In this document: positions 15,587 to 27,963 of the stretch, one piece after another
How the letters are laid out: the number at the start of each line of letters is the position of its first letter
How positions within the stretch are numbered: the stretch's first letter is position 1
Source of the DNA: Chryseobacterium balustinum
GTDB taxonomy: Bacteria > Bacteroidota > Bacteroidia > Flavobacteriales > Weeksellaceae
Direction: 5' to 3'
DNA length: 64,000 bases
Assembly: GCF_900168205.1 (NCBI RefSeq)
Contig: NZ_FUZE01000012.1
Location: 1-64,000, forward strand
Notes under the pieces: generated by a model
The model's input: only the letters and a program-made list of their open reading frames with translations
Database searches by the model: none
Told to the model about the DNA's origin: nothing
Position numbers and translations under genes: made by a program

Positions 15587-18500
15587 AGATATAACACAAC
15601 AAGATTACTGTTTTAGCAGCTTCAAGTGCGGTTGTGAATTGCTTTCATTTTTGAGTATCTTTGAGATATAACACAACAGGGCGTGCTGTTAAATATCCTG
15701 CTCATGTGTTGTGAATTGCTTTCATTTTTGAGTATCTTTGAGATATAACACAACGATAATTTTCTGTAAAAGAGCTTTGTCTTTGTTGTGAATTGCTTTC
15801 ATTTTTGAGTATCTTTGAGATATAACACAACTTTACCCATCTTTGTGGTGCATACCAGTCTGTTGTGAATTGCTTTCATTTTTGAGTATCTTTGAGATAT
15901 AACACAACAATCCCAAAAATATGCATACTACTCATGTGGTTGTGAATTGCTTTCATTTTTGAGTATCTTTGAGATATAACACAACATTTACGCAATCATG
16001 TTGGTCTGAACTTGCGTTGTGAATTGCTTTCATTTTTGAGTATCTTTGAGATATAACACAACTTTCTTTAACATAGCCTTCAAACTCTGTCAGTTGTGAA
16101 TTGCTTTCATTTTTGAGTATCTTTGAGATATAACACAACAGAAAACCAAAAAGGAAGGGACTGGAACTGGTTGTGAATTGCTTTCATTTTTGAGTATCTT
16201 TGAGATATAACACAACGCAATGATGCGATGTAATTTTTCATGTTGTGTTGTGAATTGCTTTCATTTTTGAGTATCTTTGAGATATAACACAACTAAGTGT
16301 AACCTTCTTCTTTATATTTATTGGTTGTGAATTGCTTTCATTTTTGAGTATCTTTGAGATATAACACAACTAAGTGTAACCTTCTTCTTTATATTTATTG
16401 GTTGTGAATTGCTTTCATTTTTGAGTATCTTTGAGATATAACACAACACTCTAGGATATTGGCTTGCTAACCCATCAGTTGTGAATTGCTTTCATTTTTG
16501 AGTATCTTTGAGATATAACACAACTTTGGATTGGATGACTTCTTACTTACAGTCGTTGTGAATTGCTTTCATTTTTGAGTATCTTTGAGATATAACACAA
16601 CTTACAATGAACGTGTAACAGACCCAAAGTAGTTGTGAATTGCTTTCATTTTTGAGTATCTTTGAGATATAACACAACTTCTACTTTTGGAATAAAGATA
16701 GAACTACTGTTGTGAATTGCTTTCATTTTTGAGTATCTTTGAGATATAACACAACTCCCTAAGCCTAGAAGATTCGGATACTCCTGTTGTGAATTGCTTT
16801 CATTTTTGAGTATCTTTGAGATATAACACAACTTTCTGCAATGGTTATCCGTAAGTCTATACGTTGTGAATTGCTTTCATTTTTGAGTATCTTTGAGATA
16901 TAACACAACTTGTTTTTTCATAGGTGGTAATTGTTTTCTGTTGTGAATTGCTTTCATTTTTGAGTATCTTTGAGATATAACACAACTTCCTCTTCAACAA
17001 CTTCATTCTTTGCTTCGTTGTGAATTGCTTTCATTTTTGAGTATCTTTGAGATATAACACAACGATAATTTTCTGTAAAAGAGCTTTGTCTTTGTTGTGA
17101 ATTGCTTTCATTTTTGAGTATCTTTGAGATATAACACAACTTTACCCATCTTTGTGGTGCATACCAGTCTGTTGTGAATTGCTTTCATTTTTGAGTATCT
17201 TTGAGATATAACACAACATTCGATTGAACGCTTCTTCCAGCCATTGAGTTGTGAATTGCTTTCATTTTTGAGTATCTTTGAGATATAACACAACAAAATA
17301 TAATATTGCTCTTCGGTTGGGGCGGTTGTGAATTGCTTTCATTTTTGAGTATCTTTGAGATATAACACAACTGTACTGCAACACAACCTGACGCTAAAAT
17401 AGTTGTGAATTGCTTTCATTTTTGAGTATCTTTGAGATATAACACAACATTGCATCTGGTTTATATACTCCAGAATTAGTTGTGAATTGCTTTCATTTTT
17501 GAGTATCTTTGAGATATAACACAACACTATCCACAAATAAGTGTGTTCCGTGTTAGTTGTGAATTGCTTTCATTTTTGAGTATCTTTGAGATATAACACA
17601 ACGAACATTTTAAAAGTCGCTTAATGGTGTTTGTTGTGAATTGCTTTCATTTTTGAGTATCTTTGAGATATAACACAACAGTGAGCAACGGTGTTGCTAA
17701 TTGGAATTCGTTGTGAATTGCTTTCATTTTTGAGTATCTTTGAGATATAACACAACATAATATTATTGTTTATGTTATTGTAACGGGTTGTGAATTGCTT
17801 TCATTTTTGAGTATCTTTGAGATATAACACAACCGTAAAGAAATAAGCCTTATTAGCGGTTTCGTTGTGAATTGCTTTCATTTTTGAGTATCTTTGAGAT
17901 ATAACACAACGCCCGATTGGAAGAATCAAATTGATTATCAGTTGTGAATTGCTTTCATTTTTGAGTATCTTTGAGATATAACACAACTAGATAGTGGTTA
18001 CCGTGGCGAAGTAATGTGTTGTGAATTGCTTTCATTTTTGAGTATCTTTGAGATATAACACAACATTAATGAGTTTAAACCATACTGAAGTATCGTTGTG
18101 AATTGCTTTCATTTTTGAGTATCTTTGAGATATAACACAACTCAACTGTAGAAGCATAATTTATTTCATCTGTTGTGAATTGCTTTCATTTTTGAGTATC
18201 TTTGAGATATAACACAACGCCGTGATTGCAGTTGCAAACACACCCTTAGTTGTGAATTGCTTTCATTTTTGAGTATCTTTGAGATATAACACAACATAGT
18301 TAATAACAATAATGCAGTAGTTTCAGTTGTGAATTGCTTTCATTTTTGAGTATCTTTGAGATATAACACAACCTCAAATGAAAACGGAACAATGGTATTA
18401 TCGTTGTGAATTGCTTTCATTTTTGAGTATCTTTGAGATATAACACAACGAGCTATGTTTTCTTTAGCGGTATTCCACTGTTGTGAATTGCTTTCATTTT

Positions 18501-20130: not shown

Positions 20131-20652
20131 TTATTTTTGATAATATTGACAATAAACCTCTGCTATATCTTCTGCAAAACCATAACCACAATTAGATGCC
20201 CATTTTACACATTGCATAGCTCTATTTTGAAATTGCTTTAACAGATAGTGCTTCTCTAAAAAATCGAGAGCGGTTTTATAATTATTATAAGCCTAATTGT
20301 AAAATTGTTCAGAATAATCGCCATATAAAGCAGTGAGTTCGCAGGCACTTTCTGGCAAATAAAGTATCACATCTGCCAAAGATTCTGACGAGATTTGCAG
20401 GTTTTTTAAATCCGAGATTGCTCGTTTTGCGACAGAAAATTTTTCTTTGCTCTGCATCGGGTTTTCCACATTAAATTCTTTACGAATAATCTTCTTATAT
20501 TTCTTCACCAATTCATTTTCATTTTTTGGGTTGAGGTAGAATTTGTAAAATTCTTTTATCGAGCTGTTTTTGTCGTACAGATCAAGGATATGTTCTATCA
20601 ATTGCTCTTTGCTAAATTTTGAAAATTCCTTTTTAAGTGCTGCTTTTGACAT
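20131..20652 (-). pseudogene. DUF6155-like gene with an in-frame amber stop, inside the cas operon
   Basis: The open part from ATG 20652 codes 119 aa (MSKAALKKEFSKFSKEQLIE, LYDKNSSIKEFYKFYLNP, YSEQFYN) and stops at TAG 20293-20295. The same frame then stays open for 53 more codons (AYNNYKTALDFLEKHYLLKQ, AMQCVKWASNCGYGFAEDIA) to TAA 20131-20133. The full frame of 173 codons resembles DUF6155-type small helical proteins of Flavobacteriia. One nonsense change therefore separates it from an intact gene; a functional short form or read-through cannot be excluded. It sits 20 bases after cas9 and 15 bases before cas1, an unusual place for a non-cas gene. Its role is unknown. Confidence 0.75.
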
Positions 20653-20672: not shown

Positions 20673-23600
20673 TTATGCTTTTGAGATATTACCTAATCGG
20701 TCAATGTTTAATTTTATGCAATTCTCTTTAACCATAGAGCCATCAATTGCTCGTTCCATTTTATTTAAAGTTGAAAATTCTGCTTTATTAACAATTGATA
20801 CCGCAATATCTTGTCTAGCAAAGAATATCTGACTTCCCGAAAAACTTACAACTTTGTAAATTCTTTCATTTTTTTCTTTTGTGAAATTTTTAAAATCAAT
20901 GTTATTTACGTTTTCAAGCTCGTCTTCCGAAGGAATATAAACTAAATCATTTGGACACAGATAGAAATCATTTACTCCTTTTAAGTCGACAACAGACAAT
21001 CCTTGTTTTTGCCTTTCAATAACAATATTCAAAGGAATTGTTTCATAACTTCTTTTTCCATTTTTATCTTCGTAAACTGCAAAAAACAAATTTGTTCCTT
21101 TGGCAGCTTCCACGTATTTATCTTTTTTATTGCCAGTTTGCCCAACTTGAAATTTACTTCCTAACTCAAAAACTCTCACTTTATTGATAGGTTGATGCAA
21201 TTTTCCATCATTATATTTCTCGATATTTTTATTCATATCTTCAATTCCTTCAGGTGAAAAAGCCAATTCCGGGCTTCCTTTAAATTCCAAATAATTTCTA
21301 AGAATTTTTTGAATTCCGGTATCTGAGATTGAATTAATCGATTTTAATTCAAAAGACGTATCAAGATTTTTTCTTGTTGCGGTTAATATTTTTCCTTTCG
21401 GAACTTTCACCCAAGGCAAATCAATTTTCCCAGAAACAGTTTCTTTATGCATTGGTTTTCTAATCGCCCAATTTGTTCCTGTCTGTTCTACTCTTTCTTT
21501 AGTTTTGATGCCATCTTTCTCTACATATTTTTCATAATAATTGGTAGCTTTATTGATAACTCTTAAATTTTGCTTAAAGCTTACTATGATTTTATCTAAA
21601 TTATTTTTAGCATCAATTGTAAAGCTTTCCCAAGGTTTTAAAAATTGCTTCGGAACATCTCTTTCTATTCTTTCGCCAGTTTGTGGATGCTTGTAAACCG
21701 CTTTCTCAAACTTCATCAGTTTTTTTTTCAAGTCGTAACGCTTAGTATCCGATTTTGCAGATTGATTATTCAATAAATTCACGTGGTCTTTTGTTGCACA
21801 AGCAATGACCAAAGCATCTAAAGCGTGATGGCGATGGTCTATTCTTTTCTTTGAAAATCCTTTTGAAAACTCAATCGGAACAGTTGGCAAATACTTTTGG
21901 TGATTTTCGTTCCAGGCTGTAAAATCTGTTGAATTGGTAAGTTGATTCATCCTTTCAAAACGTGGAAGAATCAAATCATTCCAAACATCGTTCAATCCCC
22001 AATCTTGCTTAAGTTGTGTCGTAATTTTTCCATTTCCCGGAACAATATTTTTAGAATTTACACCTTCATCGCTTCCATCTTCTACACGAACAATGTTGGA
22101 AAGAACACCTGAAATATATTTGCTGATATGACGAGTATCGTTTAGCTGTCGCTCAATCATTTTCTCAGGAATCTCTTCCAAAAGAAGTTTATTTCTTTTG
22201 CCTCGATTGTTGGCGTAATGTTTTTTAACAAAATCTTCATATTCATCAACTTCAAAAACTTTTACATTTTTCCCTAAACCACATTCAACAATAGTTCCAC
22301 CAAATTGCTTAATAAATCCTAATCCAATATAATTATCTTTCAATTTATTAACCGCCGATTCGCAAATAATTTTATTGCTAAAACTGTCATCAAAATATCG
22401 GCTTTGCGGAATAATGTGTTCAATTTCATATTCTGGGGTGAATAGTTTATTTAATGGAATAATTTGTCCAGTATAAGGCGATTTATATCTCTGTTCGAGC
22501 CAAAGTTTGTATCTTTTTAAATCCGATGAAGAAGGTTGTGCTGTTTTGCTAATCTTCAGAATATCATCTTCAATTTCGATGTCGGATTTTAAAATTCCAT
22601 CTTCATAGATTTTTAAAATTTCCTGTTGCATTGGAGAATATGGACGAACATTTTCAACCGAATGGTCATTCATCATTTCAGCCAATAACGCTTTGATGCG
22701 AAGATTGGTATTTTCATTTTCTGTAATTCTTTTTGTCGCATCTAATCTTTCATCTTTTGTCTGCTTCATTTCTCTGCCCAATTCAATATGAATTTCGTTG
22801 AAGAAATCTTTAGCTCCATTTCCGTATTTCCGCCAAATATCTTTTACCACACGAATTGTTTCCGTAATCACCTGCTCTACAATCGGGTTGCGAAGCGAAT
22901 GTTGTTTGAAGTCTTTCAAAAATTCTTCCAAATCACCTGCAGAATTCCATTTCCCAATCATCGACGCTTCCGAATGTCTATCATAAACAACATATTGAGC
23001 CAACCACAACTGCAAACCTTGGAAATTATTTTCAGATGTGAGATGAATCGCCTTTTCTCTTACTTTATCTTTAATATTCTCATCATATTCACCAGTAATA
23101 ATTTTCTGGATTCTTTCTTTTGAATCATCGCTGATATTTTCGTAATTCCAATATTTCCCCAATCGCATCAAAGGCAATAATTTCTTTATCGCTTTCTCCG
23201 AAAATGCCCCATACTCACTTTTGAATGGCGGGAATTTTTTAAACGCTTCAAAGAAAGAATTTTCATCTAAATTATTTTTTCTGGAAAAAGATTTCAAGGC
23301 TTTTTCATATTCCACTTTATCATTTACAGAATAGATAATATGCCAAATCTTCTGCTCAGTCTCTCTTGTGAAGAAATCATCAGACATATTTTCAACTTTA
23401 TCCAAACGTGAAGAAATCATTGTTTTGGTTTCATTACAAGGATATTTTTTATCTTCTACAAAATTCCAGCGATACGTTTTTTCATTTAATTTAAAATGTT
23501 TCAACAATGCTTTTTGGTCAACTTCTTTTCTGTTATTCAAAAATTCAAACAGACTTTCGAAGTTTTCGATTGTATCTAAAAATTCTTTCGTAACGTTAGT

Positions 23601-24962
23601 ATCATCATCTTTTTTGTAAATATTAAGATTAAAAATCCATTGCCAGATGCGAAATTCCTGATAATACGGATTCGATTTTGGAATAGCCTTTAAAAATTGA
23701 GTATGCTCCACTCCATTTTCATCTTTGTATTTTCTAGATTCTAAACTGCAATTTGAAATGGACGATTTTTGACTTCTTAAAGGTCTTTGATAAAAAACTA
23801 TATCCTCCATCAAAAGATGTACGAATTCTTTTTTACTCAAAGTCAATTGGTGCGCTTCATTATTTCGGTACAATTCACGAACGCAGTCGTTGTATAAATC
23901 ATCATTTTTTAATTCTTGATGAAATTCTTTCTGCTTTTCTAAAATCTGTTTAAGTTCATCTTTATAAAATTTTCGCTCAATCGTACGAACCAATTTTCCT
24001 TTAATTTTTTGCTTTGGATTTTGAAGAAGCGCTTCATAAATATAGACACCGACGGTTTTGTGAGATTTATCAATTTCCTGTTCAGTTTTCTTTTTGACTA
24101 AAGTCCAATCTGTTTCCGCAGGAGCTCTGAAACTTCTTTTTTCATTTCCATCTTTATCTGTTTTAATACTTCCATCATCATTCAAATCAGTAGTGACAAT
24201 AAAGTCTCTAGTTTTTTCTTTCCAATCAAATAAAGGCGTTTTACTCGAACGTCTATAAACCCAGTCGTTTTCTAAAACTAAAGAATACCAGATATCAGAT
24301 TTTCCCTTTTGCGGTTCATCCGCTAAAACATCTACAATTTTCAAAGAATAAAATTCTACCAACTTATTGGGATTCTCTTCTTCTTCCTCACCACGCAACT
24401 GATAATAACCACGTTTCTGATTAAAATTCAAAAGAATCCAAGCCAGTTCTTCTTTTTCAATTTGTTGAGAAATCGCTTTTTTGCGGAGATAATAAATCGT
24501 CCAATCGTAAGGGATTTTTTTATCGTTTTCTAAAAGTTGAGGTTGATAGTTTTTAAAATCAGCAAGCATTTCTTCAAAAGAATTTTTGAAAACAAAACCA
24601 TCTTTATTATAAGCTAATTTTAGCTCTGTTTCTTCTTTAAATTTTCCAAATCTTTTTTCAAAATCAATTTGAGAAGCATAATGTTCTGGTAAATAATTAA
24701 TGATATTCAAAACTCTGTGGAGTCTTTCTCTTCGTAATAAGAATCTTTCACGTAATCTTCTCACACCTCGATAACCTGTTCTTGCAGCAGTTTGAGAAAC
24801 GGAATTCCCTTTTCCAAAATCGCCCAAAATATCTTGAGACATAGGGATTATTCTGCTTCCCATTCCAAGAATCTTGCCTTGTTTGTTTTCAAAGTCTTGA
24901 TTGATTAGCGCCCAACCTATCGAATTGGTTCCTAAGTCTAATCCAAGTATATTTTTTGCCAT
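20673..24962 (-). CDS. cas9: Type II-C CRISPR nuclease Cas9
   Basis: A 1429-aa protein, within the range of the large Bacteroidota II-C Cas9s. All nuclease motifs are intact: RuvC-I NILGLDLGTNSIGWAL with Asp9; the bridge-helix arginines (RGVRRLRERFLLRRERLHR); RuvC-II HIELGREMK with Glu727; the HNH motif EYEIEHIIPQSRYFDDSFSN with His849; RuvC-III DHRHHALDALV with His1046 and Asp1049. The ~200-aa C-terminal part is the PAM-interacting region. It uses crRNA-tracrRNA pairs to cut DNA. No cas4 or csn2 is present, consistent with II-C. Its promoter region carries an 11-bp match to the guide of the small RNA at 25213. Confidence 0.98.
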   Translation of the reverse strand: MAKNILGLDLGTNSIGWALINQDFENKQGKILGMGSRIIPMSQDILGDFGKGNSVSQTAARTGYRGVRRLRERFLLRRERLHRVLNIINYLPEHYASQIDFEKRFGKFKEETELKLAYNKDGFVFKNSFEEMLADFKNYQPQLLENDKKIPYDWTIYYLRKKAISQQIEKEELAWILLNFNQKRGYYQLRGEEEEENPNKLVEFYSLKIVDVLADEPQKGKSDIWYSLVLENDWVYRRSSKTPLFDWKEKTRDFIVTTDLNDDGSIKTDKDGNEKRSFRAPAETDWTLVKKKTEQEIDKSHKTVGVYIYEALLQNPKQKIKGKLVRTIERKFYKDELKQILEKQKEFHQELKNDDLYNDCVRELYRNNEAHQLTLSKKEFVHLLMEDIVFYQRPLRSQKSSISNCSLESRKYKDENGVEHTQFLKAIPKSNPYYQEFRIWQWIFNLNIYKKDDDTNVTKEFLDTIENFESLFEFLNNRKEVDQKALLKHFKLNEKTYRWNFVEDKKYPCNETKTMISSRLDKVENMSDDFFTRETEQKIWHIIYSVNDKVEYEKALKSFSRKNNLDENSFFEAFKKFPPFKSEYGAFSEKAIKKLLPLMRLGKYWNYENISDDSKERIQKIITGEYDENIKDKVREKAIHLTSENNFQGLQLWLAQYVVYDRHSEASMIGKWNSAGDLEEFLKDFKQHSLRNPIVEQVITETIRVVKDIWRKYGNGAKDFFNEIHIELGREMKQTKDERLDATKRITENENTNLRIKALLAEMMNDHSVENVRPYSPMQQEILKIYEDGILKSDIEIEDDILKISKTAQPSSSDLKRYKLWLEQRYKSPYTGQIIPLNKLFTPEYEIEHIIPQSRYFDDSFSNKIICESAVNKLKDNYIGLGFIKQFGGTIVECGLGKNVKVFEVDEYEDFVKKHYANNRGKRNKLLLEEIPEKMIERQLNDTRHISKYISGVLSNIVRVEDGSDEGVNSKNIVPGNGKITTQLKQDWGLNDVWNDLILPRFERMNQLTNSTDFTAWNENHQKYLPTVPIEFSKGFSKKRIDHRHHALDALVIACATKDHVNLLNNQSAKSDTKRYDLKKKLMKFEKAVYKHPQTGERIERDVPKQFLKPWESFTIDAKNNLDKIIVSFKQNLRVINKATNYYEKYVEKDGIKTKERVEQTGTNWAIRKPMHKETVSGKIDLPWVKVPKGKILTATRKNLDTSFELKSINSISDTGIQKILRNYLEFKGSPELAFSPEGIEDMNKNIEKYNDGKLHQPINKVRVFELGSKFQVGQTGNKKDKYVEAAKGTNLFFAVYEDKNGKRSYETIPLNIVIERQKQGLSVVDLKGVNDFYLCPNDLVYIPSEDELENVNNIDFKNFTKEKNERIYKVVSFSGSQIFFARQDIAVSIVNKAEFSTLNKMERAIDGSMVKENCIKLNIDRLGNISKA

Positions 24963-25035
24963 TTTATTAAAAAGTATTAATTTAAAAAGTATTTTTCAGA
25001 AAAACTTAAAGCTTATCATTATTTTAAATATTTTT

Positions 25036-25043
25036 CAAATTTA
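25036..25043 (-). promoter_or_regulatory. Predicted cas9 promoter -7 box
   Basis: The minus strand reads TAAATTTG, a perfect TAnnTTTG, 74-81 bases upstream of the cas9 ATG. The start should be near 25030. The -33 region then falls at about 25062-25068, overlapping the guide-matching site 25058-25068. No clear TTG is present at -33. Confidence 0.55.
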
Positions 25044-25057
25044 AAATAAATATTTTA

Positions 25058-25068
25058 AGATACCTGAT
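25058..25068 (-). promoter_or_regulatory. Putative Cas9 self-target (protospacer seed) in the cas9 promoter
   Basis: The minus strand reads ATCAGGTATCT, identical over 11 bases to the sequence immediately 5' of the half-repeat in the small RNA gene (25214-25224). It lies just upstream of the cas9 -7 box, over the -33 position. The bases 3' of it on the same strand, where a PAM would be, are TAAAATATTTAT. Confidence 0.6.
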
Positions 25069-25200
25069 AATATTAAAAATTATTATATATTTACAATAAG
25101 AAAATATCAAAATCTATTTGACGAAATTGATTTGATTGGAGGTCCAAGCCCAACTTATTTCCTGCCAACAGTTAATATTGATATTATTTTCCAGCAGATT

Positions 25201-25208
25201 TAGTTTTT
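25201..25208 (+). promoter_or_regulatory. Promoter-like signal of the guide small RNA
   Basis: TAGTTTTT (7/8 to TAnnTTTG) lies 20 bases after TTG at 25178-25180. The box-to-start distance seen at tracrRNA (5-6 bases) would put the start at 25213-25214, the first base of the 11-nt cas9-promoter match. Confidence 0.45.
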
Positions 25209-25212
25209 AACT

Positions 25213-25272
25213 AATCAGGTATCTGTTGTGAATTGCTTTCTGAGGTTGTTCATATATGAACAACCTTTTTTT
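25213..25272 (+). ncRNA. Free-standing mini-crRNA/natural short guide, candidate repressor of cas9
   Basis: Three joined elements are visible. The first is AATCAGGTATCT (25213-25224), of which 11 bases match the cas9 promoter at 25058-25068. The second is GTTGTGAATTGCTTTC (25225-25240), exactly the first 16 bases of the CRISPR repeat and the part that pairs with the tracrRNA anti-repeat over 15 bp. The third is a perfect hairpin (25243-25266) followed by T7, a rho-independent terminator. The RNA would therefore have the 3' end of a mature crRNA-like guide without RNase III processing. Short guides of about 11 nt are known in tracr-L of S. pyogenes to let Cas9 bind without cutting. Expression and function are inferred. 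Confidence 0.65.
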
Positions 25273-25301
25273 GTAACGAATCCAAATATATTTTTTGCCA
25301 T
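25215..25301 (-). pseudogene. Remnant copy of the cas9 5' end
   Basis: On the minus strand an ATG at 25301 starts MAKNIFGF, against MAKNILGL in cas9. Over 23 bases (25279-25301 versus 24940-24962) the DNA is identical except for one base. The frame then runs through the terminator and half-repeat to TGA at 25215, giving 28 codons that are unlikely to be a real peptide. The copy sits about 100 bases from tracrRNA and may mark an earlier cas9 start. Confidence 0.6.
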
Positions 25302-25390
25302 AGCTTTTAGTTTAATCGAATTTTCTAAATTAATAAGAATTTAATTCATAAAAATATGGAAAACCGTAAACTGGTTAAAAATATTATTTT

Positions 25391-25398
25391 TAGATTTG
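25391..25398 (+). promoter_or_regulatory. tracrRNA promoter -7 box
   Basis: TAGATTTG, a perfect TAnnTTTG, ends 5 bases before the anti-repeat begins at 25404. No TTG was found at the -33 distance. Confidence 0.65.
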
Positions 25399-25402
25399 TA
25401 TT

Positions 25403-25476
25403 CGAAAGCAATTCACAATAAGGATTATTCCGTTGTGAAAACATTTAGCGCCTCGCCTATCTGCGGGGCATTTTTA
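25403..25476 (+). ncRNA. tracrRNA
   Basis: The anti-repeat GAAAGCAATTCACAA (25404-25418) is a perfect 15-nt complement of repeat bases 2-16. A short GGATTATTCC hairpin (nexus-like) and a linker follow. The 3' hairpin is GCCTCGC (25450-25456) with GCGGGGC (25463-25469) and then ATTTTTATTT. The gene is about 74 nt, on the + strand, divergent from cas9. It pairs with crRNAs of the array and, by the same 15 bp, with the small RNA at 25213. Confidence 0.88.
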
Positions 25477-25521: not shown

Positions 25522-25529
25522 TATTTTTG
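25522..25529 (+). promoter_or_regulatory. -7 box upstream of the right plug-protein pseudogene
   Basis: TATTTTTG matches TAnnTTTG perfectly and lies 28 bases before the ATG at 25557. Confidence 0.5.
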
Positions 25530-25556
25530 AAATATATTAAAACACGAATCCATACA

Positions 25557-27963
25557 ATGAATATTTGTTTCTCTCAAAAACCACTTATTACATTATCATT
25601 AATTAGTGCTCCATTTTATTTTTCTCAGAACAAGGCAGAAGAAGCAATTAAAAAGTTTGAAGAAAATTACCCTCAAGAAAAAATACATCTTCTTCTGAGT
25701 AAAAAGAATTATGTTGCCGGTGAAAATCTGCGGTTTACCTCTTTTGTATTTGACGGATACAACCCTTCAACTATTTCTACCAACGTTTTTGTAGAACTGT
25801 ATGATCAAAATAAAAAACAGATCAGTAAAAAAATCTACCCTTTGATTAACGGTAAAGGCAGCGGAAGTATTAGTTTACCTGCAGATTTAAAAGAAGACGT
25901 TTATTATATCAGAGCTTATACTACATGGATGGGGAATTTCAGTGACGATTTCAATGAAATAATGCCGATTACAATATACAATCCTTACATCGTCTGAAAA
26001 GTTAGTGAAAAACACTTCTGCTCCATGGTCTGCCGCAGTATTTCCGGAAAGTGGAACTTTTATTGACGGCATCACTACTAAATTTGCCGTAAGACTGCAA
26101 TCAAAAGGCGAAACACCAACAAACTGGAATGGTTTTATTACAGAAACTCAGAATCCACAAACCAAATTAGTTACTTTCAAAGGATTTGATCAAAATACAG
26201 GATCTTTTAGTTTTACACCAATTGGCGGGAAAAAGTATCAGCTTACAGTAGAAGACGAGAAAGGAATCAAGCAGACTGTTAACTTACCCGAAGTAGCTTC
26301 TTCAGGAATAAATTTACAAGTTCAAAGTCAATCTGAGGCTGTAAATTTTGTATTTAAAGGTAAAAATATTAATCCAAATGCTAAATATAAAATCTTAGGA
26401 ACGATTAATAATCAAATGGTTTACAAAGCAAATGTTTCTCAAATTTCAGATAAGGTTTATACAATTCCGACCAGCCAATTGGTAAATGGAATTCTTAATC
26501 TTACCGTTTTTGATGAGTCTTAAAATATTGTTGCCCAACGACTTTGTTTTATACAACCTCAATCTCTTAAACTTAAACAGCCGTCTTTAAAGGATATTTC
26601 GCTTAGTTCAGAGTCTAAAGCAAAAAATTCTTTTAATATCACTAATAATACTTCTATATCGAAATATATAGTAAGTATACTCGATAACGAAAGTGAAAAT
26701 CCTGAAGATGAAAACAGTTTACTAAGTACACTTTGGCTTACAGGAGATCTTATGTCAAAAATATATTATCCTGCCCAATATTTCAGTGAAAACAGAAACA
26801 CAGATGCACTGGATGCTTTATTAATTTCAGAAAAATGGTCAAGATATAATTGGCAAACCATTATGTCCGGAAATTTCCCGGTGATAAAATATAAACCAGA
26901 GAGTTATCTTTCTTACAAAGGGAAAGCTGTCAACTTGGGAAAACCTGTTTCTGAAACTGAAATTAATTTGATTTTCAATACACCATATCAGGGAATTAAA
27001 TACAATTTGATTAAAACAGATAAAGAAGGAATATTCTCTTTAAATAATTTAATTTTTGAAGATTCCATGTCATTTTATTATCAAATCAACGGCGAGAAAG
27101 CTAACAAAAGTTCGACAAAAGTTTATATTCAGCCTGCATTTGCGTTCTTACCATTTAAAAATAATCTTCCTTCTCACAATTACACACTTACACAACAGAG
27201 TTTAAACGATACACCACCTTTAGAAATAGAACGTGCTGTAACTAATAAAGTTTCAAAAGCCTTTTTTAAAGAAAAAGAAACTCTTATTGAAGAAGTTAAA
27301 ATCAAAGCACAAAAGAAAGATTTAACAAAAAAACTTAATAACGAACTTAGTAGTCCTGTTTTCAAGACTGTAGATGAAATTGTTATTGATTTAGTGAATG
27401 ATCATCCGGGTGCAAAGGGATCTCCAAACATATTTCAATATTTGCAGAGTCAAATTGGTGGTGTTCAGATTCAAATGCAAGGTGGTCAATATATGGTTAG
27501 TGGTCGCAACGGCAGAATTGAATTATATCTGGACGAAGTAAGAGTTGATGAAAACCAGATAGCTACCCTTCCTGTATCAAATATTGCAATGGTAAAGGTA
27601 ATCAGAGGAAATTTTGTAGGAAATTCCGGAGGGCGTGGTGGAGCAATTGCAATCTATACTCGACGTGGAGTATCTGGCTCTATAATAGATACTAGTTTAC
27701 CATCTAATCTTGTAGAAAGTAAACTCAATGGATATGATAAAGAAATTCCTTTTAATAATGGAATTTACGACGAAGAAAGCGCAAAATCTGTTCCTGAAGA
27801 TAAAAGAAGTATTTTATATTGGAATCCTTATTTAGAAAGCAAATCCCGAAACCCTACTACTGTACAATGGTATAATAATGATGATGCAAAAAATTTCCGT
27901 GTGATGATTATAGGTTTTGATGAAAACAATGATCTCCTATATTACAATGAGATTTTAAAATAG
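25557..27963 (+). pseudogene. TonB-plug-domain protein, right paralogue, inactivated by two lesions
   Basis: Same architecture as the gene at 13019: signal peptide (MNICFSQKPLITLSLISAP), MG2-like part (KKNYVAGENLRFTSFVFDG, DVYYIRAYTTWMGNF), and a plug near the end (NIFQYLQSQIGGVQI, IELYLDEVRVDE, NIAMVKVIRGNF, GGRGGAIAIYTRRG). One extra A at about 25987 shifts the frame at IYNP, where the paralogue reads IYNPSSPRKL. In the second frame TAA 26521-26523 replaces a codon that is Lys in the paralogue (FDDKKNV against FDES-stop-NIV). The frame then stays open to 27963. A sequencing error could explain the indel but not easily both lesions. Confidence 0.85.

What the first reader, a model, noticed from the sequence alone, without database searches (positions are those of the whole stretch)
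25201..25272. Self-terminating mini-crRNA whose 11-nt guide matches the cas9 promoter: a candidate Cas9 autorepression RNA in a II-C system
Seen: AATCAGGTATCT is followed directly by exactly the first 16 bases of the CRISPR repeat and then by a perfect hairpin with T7. The 11 bases ATCAGGTATCT recur, inverted, at 25058-25068, over the -33 region of the predicted cas9 promoter (TAAATTTG at 25043-25036). A TTG-N20-TAGTTTTT signal would start the RNA at 25213-25214, exactly where the match begins. The 11 matching bases are the 3' end of the guide, next to the repeat, which is the PAM-proximal seed for Cas9. Known: S. pyogenes tracr-L and the CreR guides use short matches to let Cas effectors bind, not cut, and repress cas genes; Francisella scaRNA is a related idea. 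Inferred: this RNA plus tracrRNA directs Cas9 to shut down cas9. A separate, promoter-driven, pre-terminated guide in a Bacteroidota II-C locus is, as far as I know, undescribed.
Basis: partly seen in the sequence, partly recalled or inferred. Interest (0 to 1): 0.95.

Follow-up and report, generated by a model that had tools for sequence, protein, structure and literature searches.

The report
Self-repressing mini-crRNA at Cas9 promoter
A bacterial CRISPR immune gene appears to be switched down by its own Cas9 protein, steered by a small built-in guide RNA that fits its promoter for only about 11 letters, and unrelated guide-and-site pairs of the same design recur in related bacteria.

Summary
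In detail: 11 guide letters (25214-25224), the first 16 letters of the repeat (25225-25240), a hairpin-T7 terminator, and the 11 letters inverted at 25058-25068. It is not chance. Among 127 distinct Cas9 loci I found 19 such units in three layouts. Ten (type A, window included) have the site between cas9 and the RNA, in their overlapping divergent promoters; their guides fit their own site for 10-13 nt (one with a mismatch). Within homologous groups guide and site change together. Site flanks carry the PAM deduced from spacers: NNAAAT at 9 of 9 sites of the window's Cas9 group, NAAAC at 6 of 7 of a second subclade. A cloverleaf-RNA model built on the units then pointed to one locus not yet counted, which obeys the same rules. 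Corrections: the RNA is probably longer, starting after 25093 with a cloverleaf domain (a tRNA in type B); the common target is the RNA's own promoter, which only type A shares with cas9. Works like CreR RNAs and tracr-L, here in type II-C. No transcript or repression was measured.

The parts
20673..24962 (-). cas9 (1429 aa), type II Cas9 with RuvC-III, HNH and bridge helix
   Evidence: TIGR01865 403 bits; PF18541, PF13395, PF16593
19223..20116 (-). cas1 (type II)
   Evidence: TIGR03639 284.6 bits
18738..19076 (-). cas2
   Evidence: TIGR01573 56.1 bits
15500..18680 (+). CRISPR array, 47-nt repeat, 30-nt spacers, first repeat incomplete; crRNA reads spacer then GTTGTGAATTGCTTTC
24963..25278 (.). 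inserted regulatory unit (316 bp), absent from the nearest relative
   Evidence: window and L075 printed together and compared by eye
25036..25043 (-). cas9 -7 box TAAATTTG (Bacteroidota TAnnTTTG; motif recalled)
25052..25057 (-). PAM-side flank TAAAAT (NNAAAT)
   Evidence: PAM from own spacers
25058..25068 (-). target site (protospacer strand minus), 11 nt; by spacing it covers the -33 region of both divergent promoters
   Evidence: the -33 assignment is inferred
25086..25093 (+). -7 box TATATTTA of the guide RNA's promoter (7 of 8 to TAnnTTTG)
25094..25199 (+). cloverleaf 5' domain of the RNA
   Evidence: covariance model R1, 75.5 bits, E 8.7e-14; the window is one of the 11 rows the model was built from
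25205..25224 (+). guide (20 nt shown); 25214-25224 match the target, the 9 nt before them match at 5 of 9
25225..25240 (+). half repeat, complementary to the tracrRNA antirepeat
25243..25272 (+). intrinsic terminator
25279..25301 (-). leftover copy of the cas9 start (22 of 23 nt) at the outer edge of the insert
25391..25476 (+). tracrRNA: -7 box TAGATTTG 25391-25398, antirepeat GAAAGCAATTCACAAT 25404-25419, terminator to about 25476
   Evidence: read from the sequence

Best explanation
The stretch 24963-25278 is a regulatory unit that has come to lie between cas9 and its former promoter. Two divergent promoters, one for cas9 and one for a small RNA, share a -33 region. The RNA (about 25095-25272) carries a cloverleaf domain, a guide, half a CRISPR repeat and a terminator. 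Its half repeat pairs with tracrRNA and loads Cas9 like a mature crRNA. The 11-nt seed then brings Cas9 to the shared promoter next to a proper PAM. Pairing stops after the seed, so Cas9 binds without cutting and blocks cas9 and the RNA's own gene: a negative feedback on the Cas9-guide level. Shown: sequence anatomy, guide-site co-variation, PAM, position, structural conservation of the leader, insertion relative to the nearest kin. Inferred: transcription, loading, binding without cutting, repression.
For: (1) Nine further type A loci have the same order cas9 / site / cloverleaf / guide-half repeat / tracrRNA. (2) Seed match to the own site: for the window, L066, L071, L072, L100, L170, L192 and L193 none of 119-122 other upstream regions reaches the own value (best 7-9 nt; the four homologues L066, L071, L072, L100 were not compared with each other). 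(3) GTACAGAGTTA (L066, L072, L100) versus GTGCAGAGTTA (L071): the site changes in step; the same in type C, ATTGAATCG versus ATTAAATCG. (4) PAM: 9 of 9 group-1 sites NNAAAT, background 2.06% of positions; window protospacers have NNAAAA, NNAAAT, NNAAAT, NNAATT; second subclade NAAAC at 6 of 7 sites. (5) All 12 type A sites lie 24-31 bp before a -7 box of the RNA. The strict cas9-directed box CAAAnnTA lies within 26 bp before to 11 bp after the start of 10 of 12 sites, and within 115 bp of cas9 in 7 of 10 type A loci against 5 of 106 unit-less ones. (6) The cloverleaf model, built without L069, pointed to L069, which then showed site, PAM and spacing. (7) In L066 and L072 half repeat and antirepeat carry the matching change while the array repeat does not. 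(8) The site has the same sense as cas9 mRNA, so antisense pairing with that mRNA is excluded.
Against: No RNA or expression data. L069 has a mismatch at the seventh seed position. L254: 1 of 122 other regions reaches its 10 nt, and it lacks a simple terminator behind the half repeat. Half repeats of L069 and L254 carry a change that their tracrRNAs do not match. The flank at L170 (AGTTCC) fits neither inferred PAM; the PAM of its Cas9 was not tested. The inner site of L066 and of L072 has no strict cas9 -7 box, and the relaxed form [CT]AAAnnTA is uninformative: 89 of 106 unit-less loci have it. Six of the nine group-1 sites are homologous, so the PAM cases are about four independent ones. Layouts B and C show self-targeting without a cas9 promoter in reach. 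Old-promoter read-through into cas9 is not excluded. The window's cloverleaf alone folds little better than shuffles (z -0.8).
Confidence: 0.85

Rival explanations
1. The RNA is a self-limiting guide whose real target is its own promoter; it sets guide dose to Cas9 level or keeps Cas9 in a harmless complex, and cas9 repression in type A is a by-product of the shared promoter.
For: In all 18 units with a site in hand the site lies 20-40 bp before a -7 box of the RNA itself. In types B and C the best exact seed near cas9 is 2-5 nt, except 8 nt in L197, and 4-9 nt if one mismatch is allowed.
Against: Type A brings a strict cas9 -7 box near the site in all ten loci (10 of 12 sites), which only 5 of 106 unit-less loci and 0 of 9 type B and C loci have near cas9. 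In the window the unit lies between cas9 and its former promoter, so cas9 probably uses the targeted region.
Confidence: 0.1
2. A tracrRNA sponge: the half repeat titrates tracrRNA and the guide is irrelevant.
For: Half repeat complementary to the antirepeat.
Against: Guide-site co-variation and PAM are unexplained.
Confidence: 0.02
3. A relic: a stray repeat copy and a chance inverted repeat.
For: Patchy presence: 14 type A and B loci need 13 changes on the Cas9 tree of 127.
Against: Same anatomy with unrelated guides, compensatory changes, conserved spacing and PAM.
Confidence: 0.02
4. The inverted repeat is an operator for a DNA-binding protein, unrelated to Cas9.
For: Sites lie in promoters.
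Against: One arm abuts the half repeat and the other lies beside a Cas9 PAM where that PAM was tested; arms are unrelated between lineages.
Confidence: 0.01

Closest known systems
CreR, cas-regulating RNAs (types I-B, I-E, V-A)
   Same: RNAs that mediate autorepression of cas genes through partial complementarity to the promoter (one sentence of the review PMC13131331; that they are separate crRNA-like RNAs is recalled).
   Different: Here type II-C with Cas9 and tracrRNA; half repeat with built-in terminator; cloverleaf or tRNA leader; the site is also the RNA's own promoter. The subtype list is that review's; the original paper was not read.
tracr-L of Streptococcus pyogenes (type II-A)
   Same: Eleven nt of match let Cas9 repress the cas promoter (PMC11417352, passages).
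   Different: tracr-L is one RNA that holds guide and tracr parts, made from the tracrRNA locus; here guide and tracrRNA are separate genes with a terminator between them.
Francisella scaRNA (type II-B)
   Same: Cas9 with a small RNA and 9-15 bp of complementarity beside a PAM near a start site (as cited in PMC13431127, passage).
   Different: It regulates other genes (recalled); no cas9 target is mentioned in the passage seen.
Neisseria meningitidis scaRNA (type II-C)
   Same: A small RNA of a II-C locus that Cas9 binds in vitro (PMC13431127, passages).
   Different: Represses efeO at the mRNA level; its authors' searches found no such promoter target.
Phage anti-CRISPR RNAs (Racr)
   Same: Solitary repeat units (recalled).
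   Different: Phage-borne decoys (recalled); here a chromosomal unit with a matching guide and site.

Membership tests
CreR-type cas-regulating RNA | crRNA-like RNA, separate from the array, with repeat-derived handle | tested here: met
   By sequence: half repeat 25225-25240 outside the array; 19 units in 127 loci. That the RNA is made was not testable.
CreR-type cas-regulating RNA | partial match to the cas promoter beside a PAM | tested here: met
   11 nt with TAAAAT flank; own spacers give NNAAAW in 3 of 4 protospacers
CreR-type cas-regulating RNA | effector binds without cleaving and represses cas genes | not testable with these tools
   needs expression data
CreR-type cas-regulating RNA | subtype I-B, I-E or V-A as published | tested here: not met
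   type II Cas9 and Cas1; list from one sentence of PMC13131331
tracr-L | single RNA with guide and tracr parts | tested here: not met
   terminator 25243-25272 and a separate tracr -7 box 25391-25398 lie between guide and antirepeat; a read-through RNA is not excluded
tracr-L | about 11-nt seed match to the cas promoter | tested here: met
Francisella scaRNA | directs Cas9 to promoters of non-cas genes | not tested
   no genome-wide target search was made
tRNA (RF00005), for the leader of type B units | reaches the Rfam gathering score | tested here: met
   L197 60.2, L196 58.3, L199 52.6, L052 51.9 bits, threshold 29
tRNA (RF00005), for the cloverleaf of type A units | found by Rfam or called by ARAGORN | tested here: not met
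   no tRNA hit in the six type A loci given to Rfam (L254, L170, L193; L120 = L100, L121 = L071, L117 = L170 and the window) and none by ARAGORN in all ten

The most novel reading that the evidence does not exclude
A family of exchangeable 'plug-in' autoregulators for type II-C Cas9: a cassette with its own promoter, a tRNA or tRNA-like cloverleaf that is cut off by tRNA-processing enzymes to release the guide, a half repeat and a terminator, whose guide was copied from its own promoter and holds Cas9 there. Swapping the cassette in front of cas9 rewires it to a Cas9-sensing promoter, so that phage-directed crRNAs or anti-CRISPR proteins that occupy Cas9 raise both cas9 and the guide.
Probability: 0.35. 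Interest if true: 0.9.

Novelty: new variant of a known kind. Interest (0 to 1): 0.82.

Why it matters
RNA-guided autorepression is known for II-A (tracr-L) and, by a review sentence, for types I-B, I-E and V-A (CreR). This would show that II-C systems reached the same control by another construction, with 18 natural guide-site-PAM cases to read. It makes testable whether II-C Cas9 levels are held down to avoid autoimmunity and released by anti-CRISPRs, offers natural short-seed CRISPRi modules, and suggests that the PAM of an uncharacterised Cas9 can be read from such a site. A cloverleaf or tRNA leader on such an RNA did not turn up in the paper listings seen.

Tried and rejected
Phage anti-CRISPR RNA: 34 viral contigs hold GTTGTGAATTGCTTTYB; within the fetched stretches two show 9- and 10-nt matches over 2 kb away and the rest none of 9 or more; hairpins there were only looked at by eye. 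Ideas dropped by eye: kissing of cloverleaf hairpins H1 (GAC) and H2 (GUC), broken in L192 and L193; hammerhead ribozyme (CUGACGAG core), no GAAA core, and no Rfam hit. Antisense pairing to cas9 mRNA: wrong sense. The relaxed box [CT]AAAnnTA as evidence for a cas9 promoter: dropped, since 89 of 106 unit-less loci have it. Half-repeat places that are not units: 5 of 24 rows (L192 at 282, L249, L254 at 482, L261 twice); rows with a guide ending ATCCTT or ACCCTT (tracrRNA antirepeats) were dropped by the script before that count. Of 19 distinct pattern hits in the genus, family and order searches, six are units (L115 = window, L117, L120, L121, L123, L307) and 13 are not (L116, L118, L119 in an array, L122, L124, L125, L303-L306, L308-L310). 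L320 (G059, E 0.088): no half repeat in the 701 nt looked at. The window array against phage records gave no row that I could use as a protospacer, mainly phage-borne repeats in Riemerella phages. In one search the other units did worse: L199 0 of 122 regions reach its 10 nt but 21 of 3000 shuffles do; L196 and L197 3 of 121 regions, 61 and 42 of 3000 shuffles, scored on a 10-nt partner between tRNA and guide, not on their 8-nt promoter site; L052 has only 6 nt, reached by 63 of 122 regions. L069 and type C were not in that test.

Full report
What was checked. The 16-nt half repeat occurs 42 times in the genome, 41 times in the array and once at 25225-25240. The locus is a type II system: Cas9 (TIGR01865), Cas1 of type II, Cas2, a 47-nt repeat array, and a tracrRNA with antirepeat GAAAGCAATTCACAAT at 25404-25419; type II-C is taken from the absence of csn2 and cas4 among the listed ORFs between cas9, cas1, cas2 and array. 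The genus is inferred as Chryseobacterium from the named nearest relatives.

Relatives. Cas9 N-terminus searches and one genome scan, followed by stretches from 79 of the 93 genus genomes with a match (own included) and 40 places outside the genus, one of them from the family pattern search, gave 127 distinct loci after removal of copies that agree around the cas9 start. Five have under 450 bp upstream (L052, L053, L060, L067, L250). Twenty-four half-repeat-like places with at most two mismatches in 14 were found outside arrays, tracrRNA antirepeats dropped. Nineteen, in 19 loci, are units; five are not.

Type A (10 loci: window, L066, L069, L071, L072, L100, L170, L192, L193, L254). The RNA is divergent from cas9 and reads toward tracrRNA. 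Guides match a site between cas9 and the RNA for 11, 11, 12 with one mismatch, 11, 12, 12, 10, 11, 13 and 10 nt. L066 and L072 have the site twice because a stretch of about 154 bp is doubled. In 119-122 other upstream regions the same guide ends match at most 7-9 nt for eight loci (window, L066, L071, L072, L100, L170, L192, L193); for L254 one of 122 regions reaches the own value; L069 was not in that test. Of 3000 Markov shuffles of the own region, 0 reach the own value for the window, L066, L071, L072, L100, L192 and L193, 7 for L170 and 5 for L254. L071 differs by one letter from its homologues in guide and in site alike. Beyond the seed, 1-6 of the remaining 7-10 letters match (L069 aside), total 13-17 of 20, which fits binding without cutting; that step is inferred from other Cas9s.

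PAM. Four window spacers match sequence in other genus genomes at 27-30 of 30 letters, with 3' flanks TAAAAA, GCAAAT, TAAAAT and AAAATT. The nine sites of the window's Cas9 group (window, L066 twice, L069, L071, L072 twice, L100, L199) all have NNAAAT, against 2.06% of positions in the upstream regions of that group; six of the nine are homologous. Published Flavobacterium PAMs are NNAAAG or SNAAAG for Fp2Cas9 (PMC10309648, PMC12609912, passages) and NNNNNTAAA for F. columnare (PMC8092290, passages). In a second Cas9 subclade, 13 of 34 non-array spacer matches were fetched (the other 21 are one spacer that hits a widely shared sequence, of which two hits were fetched); by spacer, 4 of 10 have NAAAC or NAAAG, 2 NAAAT and 4 neither. 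The seven unit sites in that subclade (L192, L193, five homologous type C) are NAAAC in 6 and NAAAT in 1; NAAAC or NAAAG stands at 1.8% of positions in loci outside the window's group. So the flank follows the Cas9. L254 has AGAAAT, L170 AGTTCC, L196 and L197 CAATAC; the PAMs of these Cas9s were not tested.

Position. In type A the PAM-side edge of the site lies 24-31 bp before a -7 box of the RNA (TAnnTTTG, in the window TATATTTA) at all 12 sites; three sites also have a weaker TAnnTTTA nearer by. A strict cas9-directed box CAAAnnTA lies near 10 of 12 sites, in all ten loci. Within 115 bp of cas9 it occurs in 7 of 10 type A loci, 0 of 9 type B and C, and 5 of 106 unit-less loci; the relaxed form is common everywhere and proves nothing. 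In the window the spacing puts the -33 regions of both promoters on the site (inferred; no -33 motif was scored).

Leader. The 11 leaders of nine type A loci (two have two; L069 not included) share a cloverleaf: a closing stem and three hairpins, with loops UGACGA, GUCCAAA and CCAAG in most. RNAalifold gives 26 pairs, 23 with at least one both-sides change. Single folds have z-scores from -0.8 (window) to -4.4. In 100 held sources a covariance model found the leaders it was built from, L069 (37.8 bits, E 7.9e-5) and one weak place in L254 (E 0.1). L069 had been seen without an exact guide match and had not been counted; it then showed the half repeat GCTGTGAATTACTTTC, a 12-nt site with one mismatch, flank TAAAAT and spacing 29. 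Over 171 genomes of the genus the model hits 9 with E at or below 3.1e-4, all at these units, and one at 0.088 that is not; that search uses strict filters and can miss weak copies. Rfam has no match for the leader in the six loci scanned.

Types B and C. Type B (L052, L196, L197, L199): the RNA lies on the cas9 strand and a tRNA precedes the guide (Rfam tRNA 51.9-60.2 bits; ARAGORN Phe gaa, Ile tat, Phe gaa, Asn att). L199 matches 10 nt in the promoter of this transcript with flank TAAAAT; L196 and L197 match 8 nt, then after a one-letter gap more alike letters; L052 ends before the expected place. Type C (L171, L172, L180, L184, L187): beyond tracrRNA, no tRNA called, 9-10 nt, site 39-40 bp before the own -7 box, guide and site changing together. 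Neither type shows a match at cas9 itself apart from 8 nt in L197. The common denominator is a guide against the RNA's own promoter; type A ties cas9 to it.

Origin. The nearest relative, L075 (Cas9 N-terminus 95% identical), lacks the unit: the window has 316 bp (24963-25278) plus a 23-bp leftover of the cas9 start (25279-25301) between cas9 and the old promoter. On a FastTree of 127 Cas9 N-terminal parts the 14 type A and B loci need 13 changes (type C counted as none; 43 of 124 inner branches are weak). The unit is gained or lost often; the count cannot tell which.

Mechanism and steps. Shown by sequence: anatomy, co-variation, PAM, spacing, leader structure, insertion. Inferred: the RNA is made, pairs with tracrRNA, loads Cas9, holds it at the shared promoter without cutting, and so lowers cas9 and itself. 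Release of the guide by tRNA-processing enzymes is a guess that rests on the tRNA in type B and the cloverleaf in type A.

Literature. Passages only were seen of tracr-L in PMC11417352, a review with one sentence on CreR, PMC13131331, meningococcal scaRNA PMC13431127, the review PMC10013973 (nothing found there on guide-based cas9 autorepression in II-C) and Riemerella spacer acquisition PMC6008519. The primary CreR and tracr-L papers were not read. Searches for autorepression, II-C autoregulation, Chryseobacterium Cas9, tRNA-like leaders and natural single guides listed no paper that by title or start of abstract describes such an RNA; most listed papers were not opened, and the library holds open-licence papers only.

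Noticed in passing
L300 (Riemerella phage RAP44) 650-800; L301 (CRP19) 650-940: Unannotated phage-borne mini-arrays: part repeat with promoter-like box, one (RAP44) or three spacers (CRP19, one of them twice), full repeats much like the hosts', and an array-end terminator like the window's, between a hypothetical gene and a dinD-like gene. GDF21 (L302) has a similar hit, sequence not read. Targets were not sought.
   Followed up: partly
upstream of cas9 in unit-less loci; window 25354-25371 beside tracrRNA: A short palindrome-like element (such as ACGGAAAACCGT) between cas9 and tracrRNA: a loose pattern finds it within 115 bp of cas9 in 53 of 106 unit-less, 9 of 9 type B and C and 0 of 10 type A loci. 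Possible part of the default cas9 promoter.
   Followed up: partly
window 15755-15861 and 17064-17170; 16294-16400: A block of two spacers occurs twice in the array, and one spacer stands twice side by side.
   Followed up: no
window 25527-27963 +: A reading frame in three pieces beside tracrRNA, perhaps a broken gene; no Pfam hit for the two pieces tried.
   Followed up: no
window 20293-20652 -: Small gene between cas1 and cas9, DUF6155.
   Followed up: no
L254, about 243-320 bp upstream of cas9: Behind the half repeat there is a stretch that looks tRNA-like by eye in place of a simple terminator; not called by ARAGORN or Rfam.
   Followed up: partly
L261, 33 and 366 bp upstream of cas9: A worn full repeat beside the cas9 start and a half-repeat-like place with only an 8-nt match: perhaps a decayed unit.
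   Followed up: no
L066 and L072 tracrRNA: The antirepeat has T where others have C; it pairs fully with the mini-RNA's half repeat and by wobble with the array repeats.
   Followed up: partly
L196, L197 between tRNA and guide: A 10-nt inverted partner of the guide's end could fold the guide into a hairpin in the transcript.
   Followed up: no
L323 (G095) and L324 (G100): Spacers of these two genomes match their own chromosomes at 30 of 30 letters, with flanks CATCAG and AAAATA.
   Followed up: no
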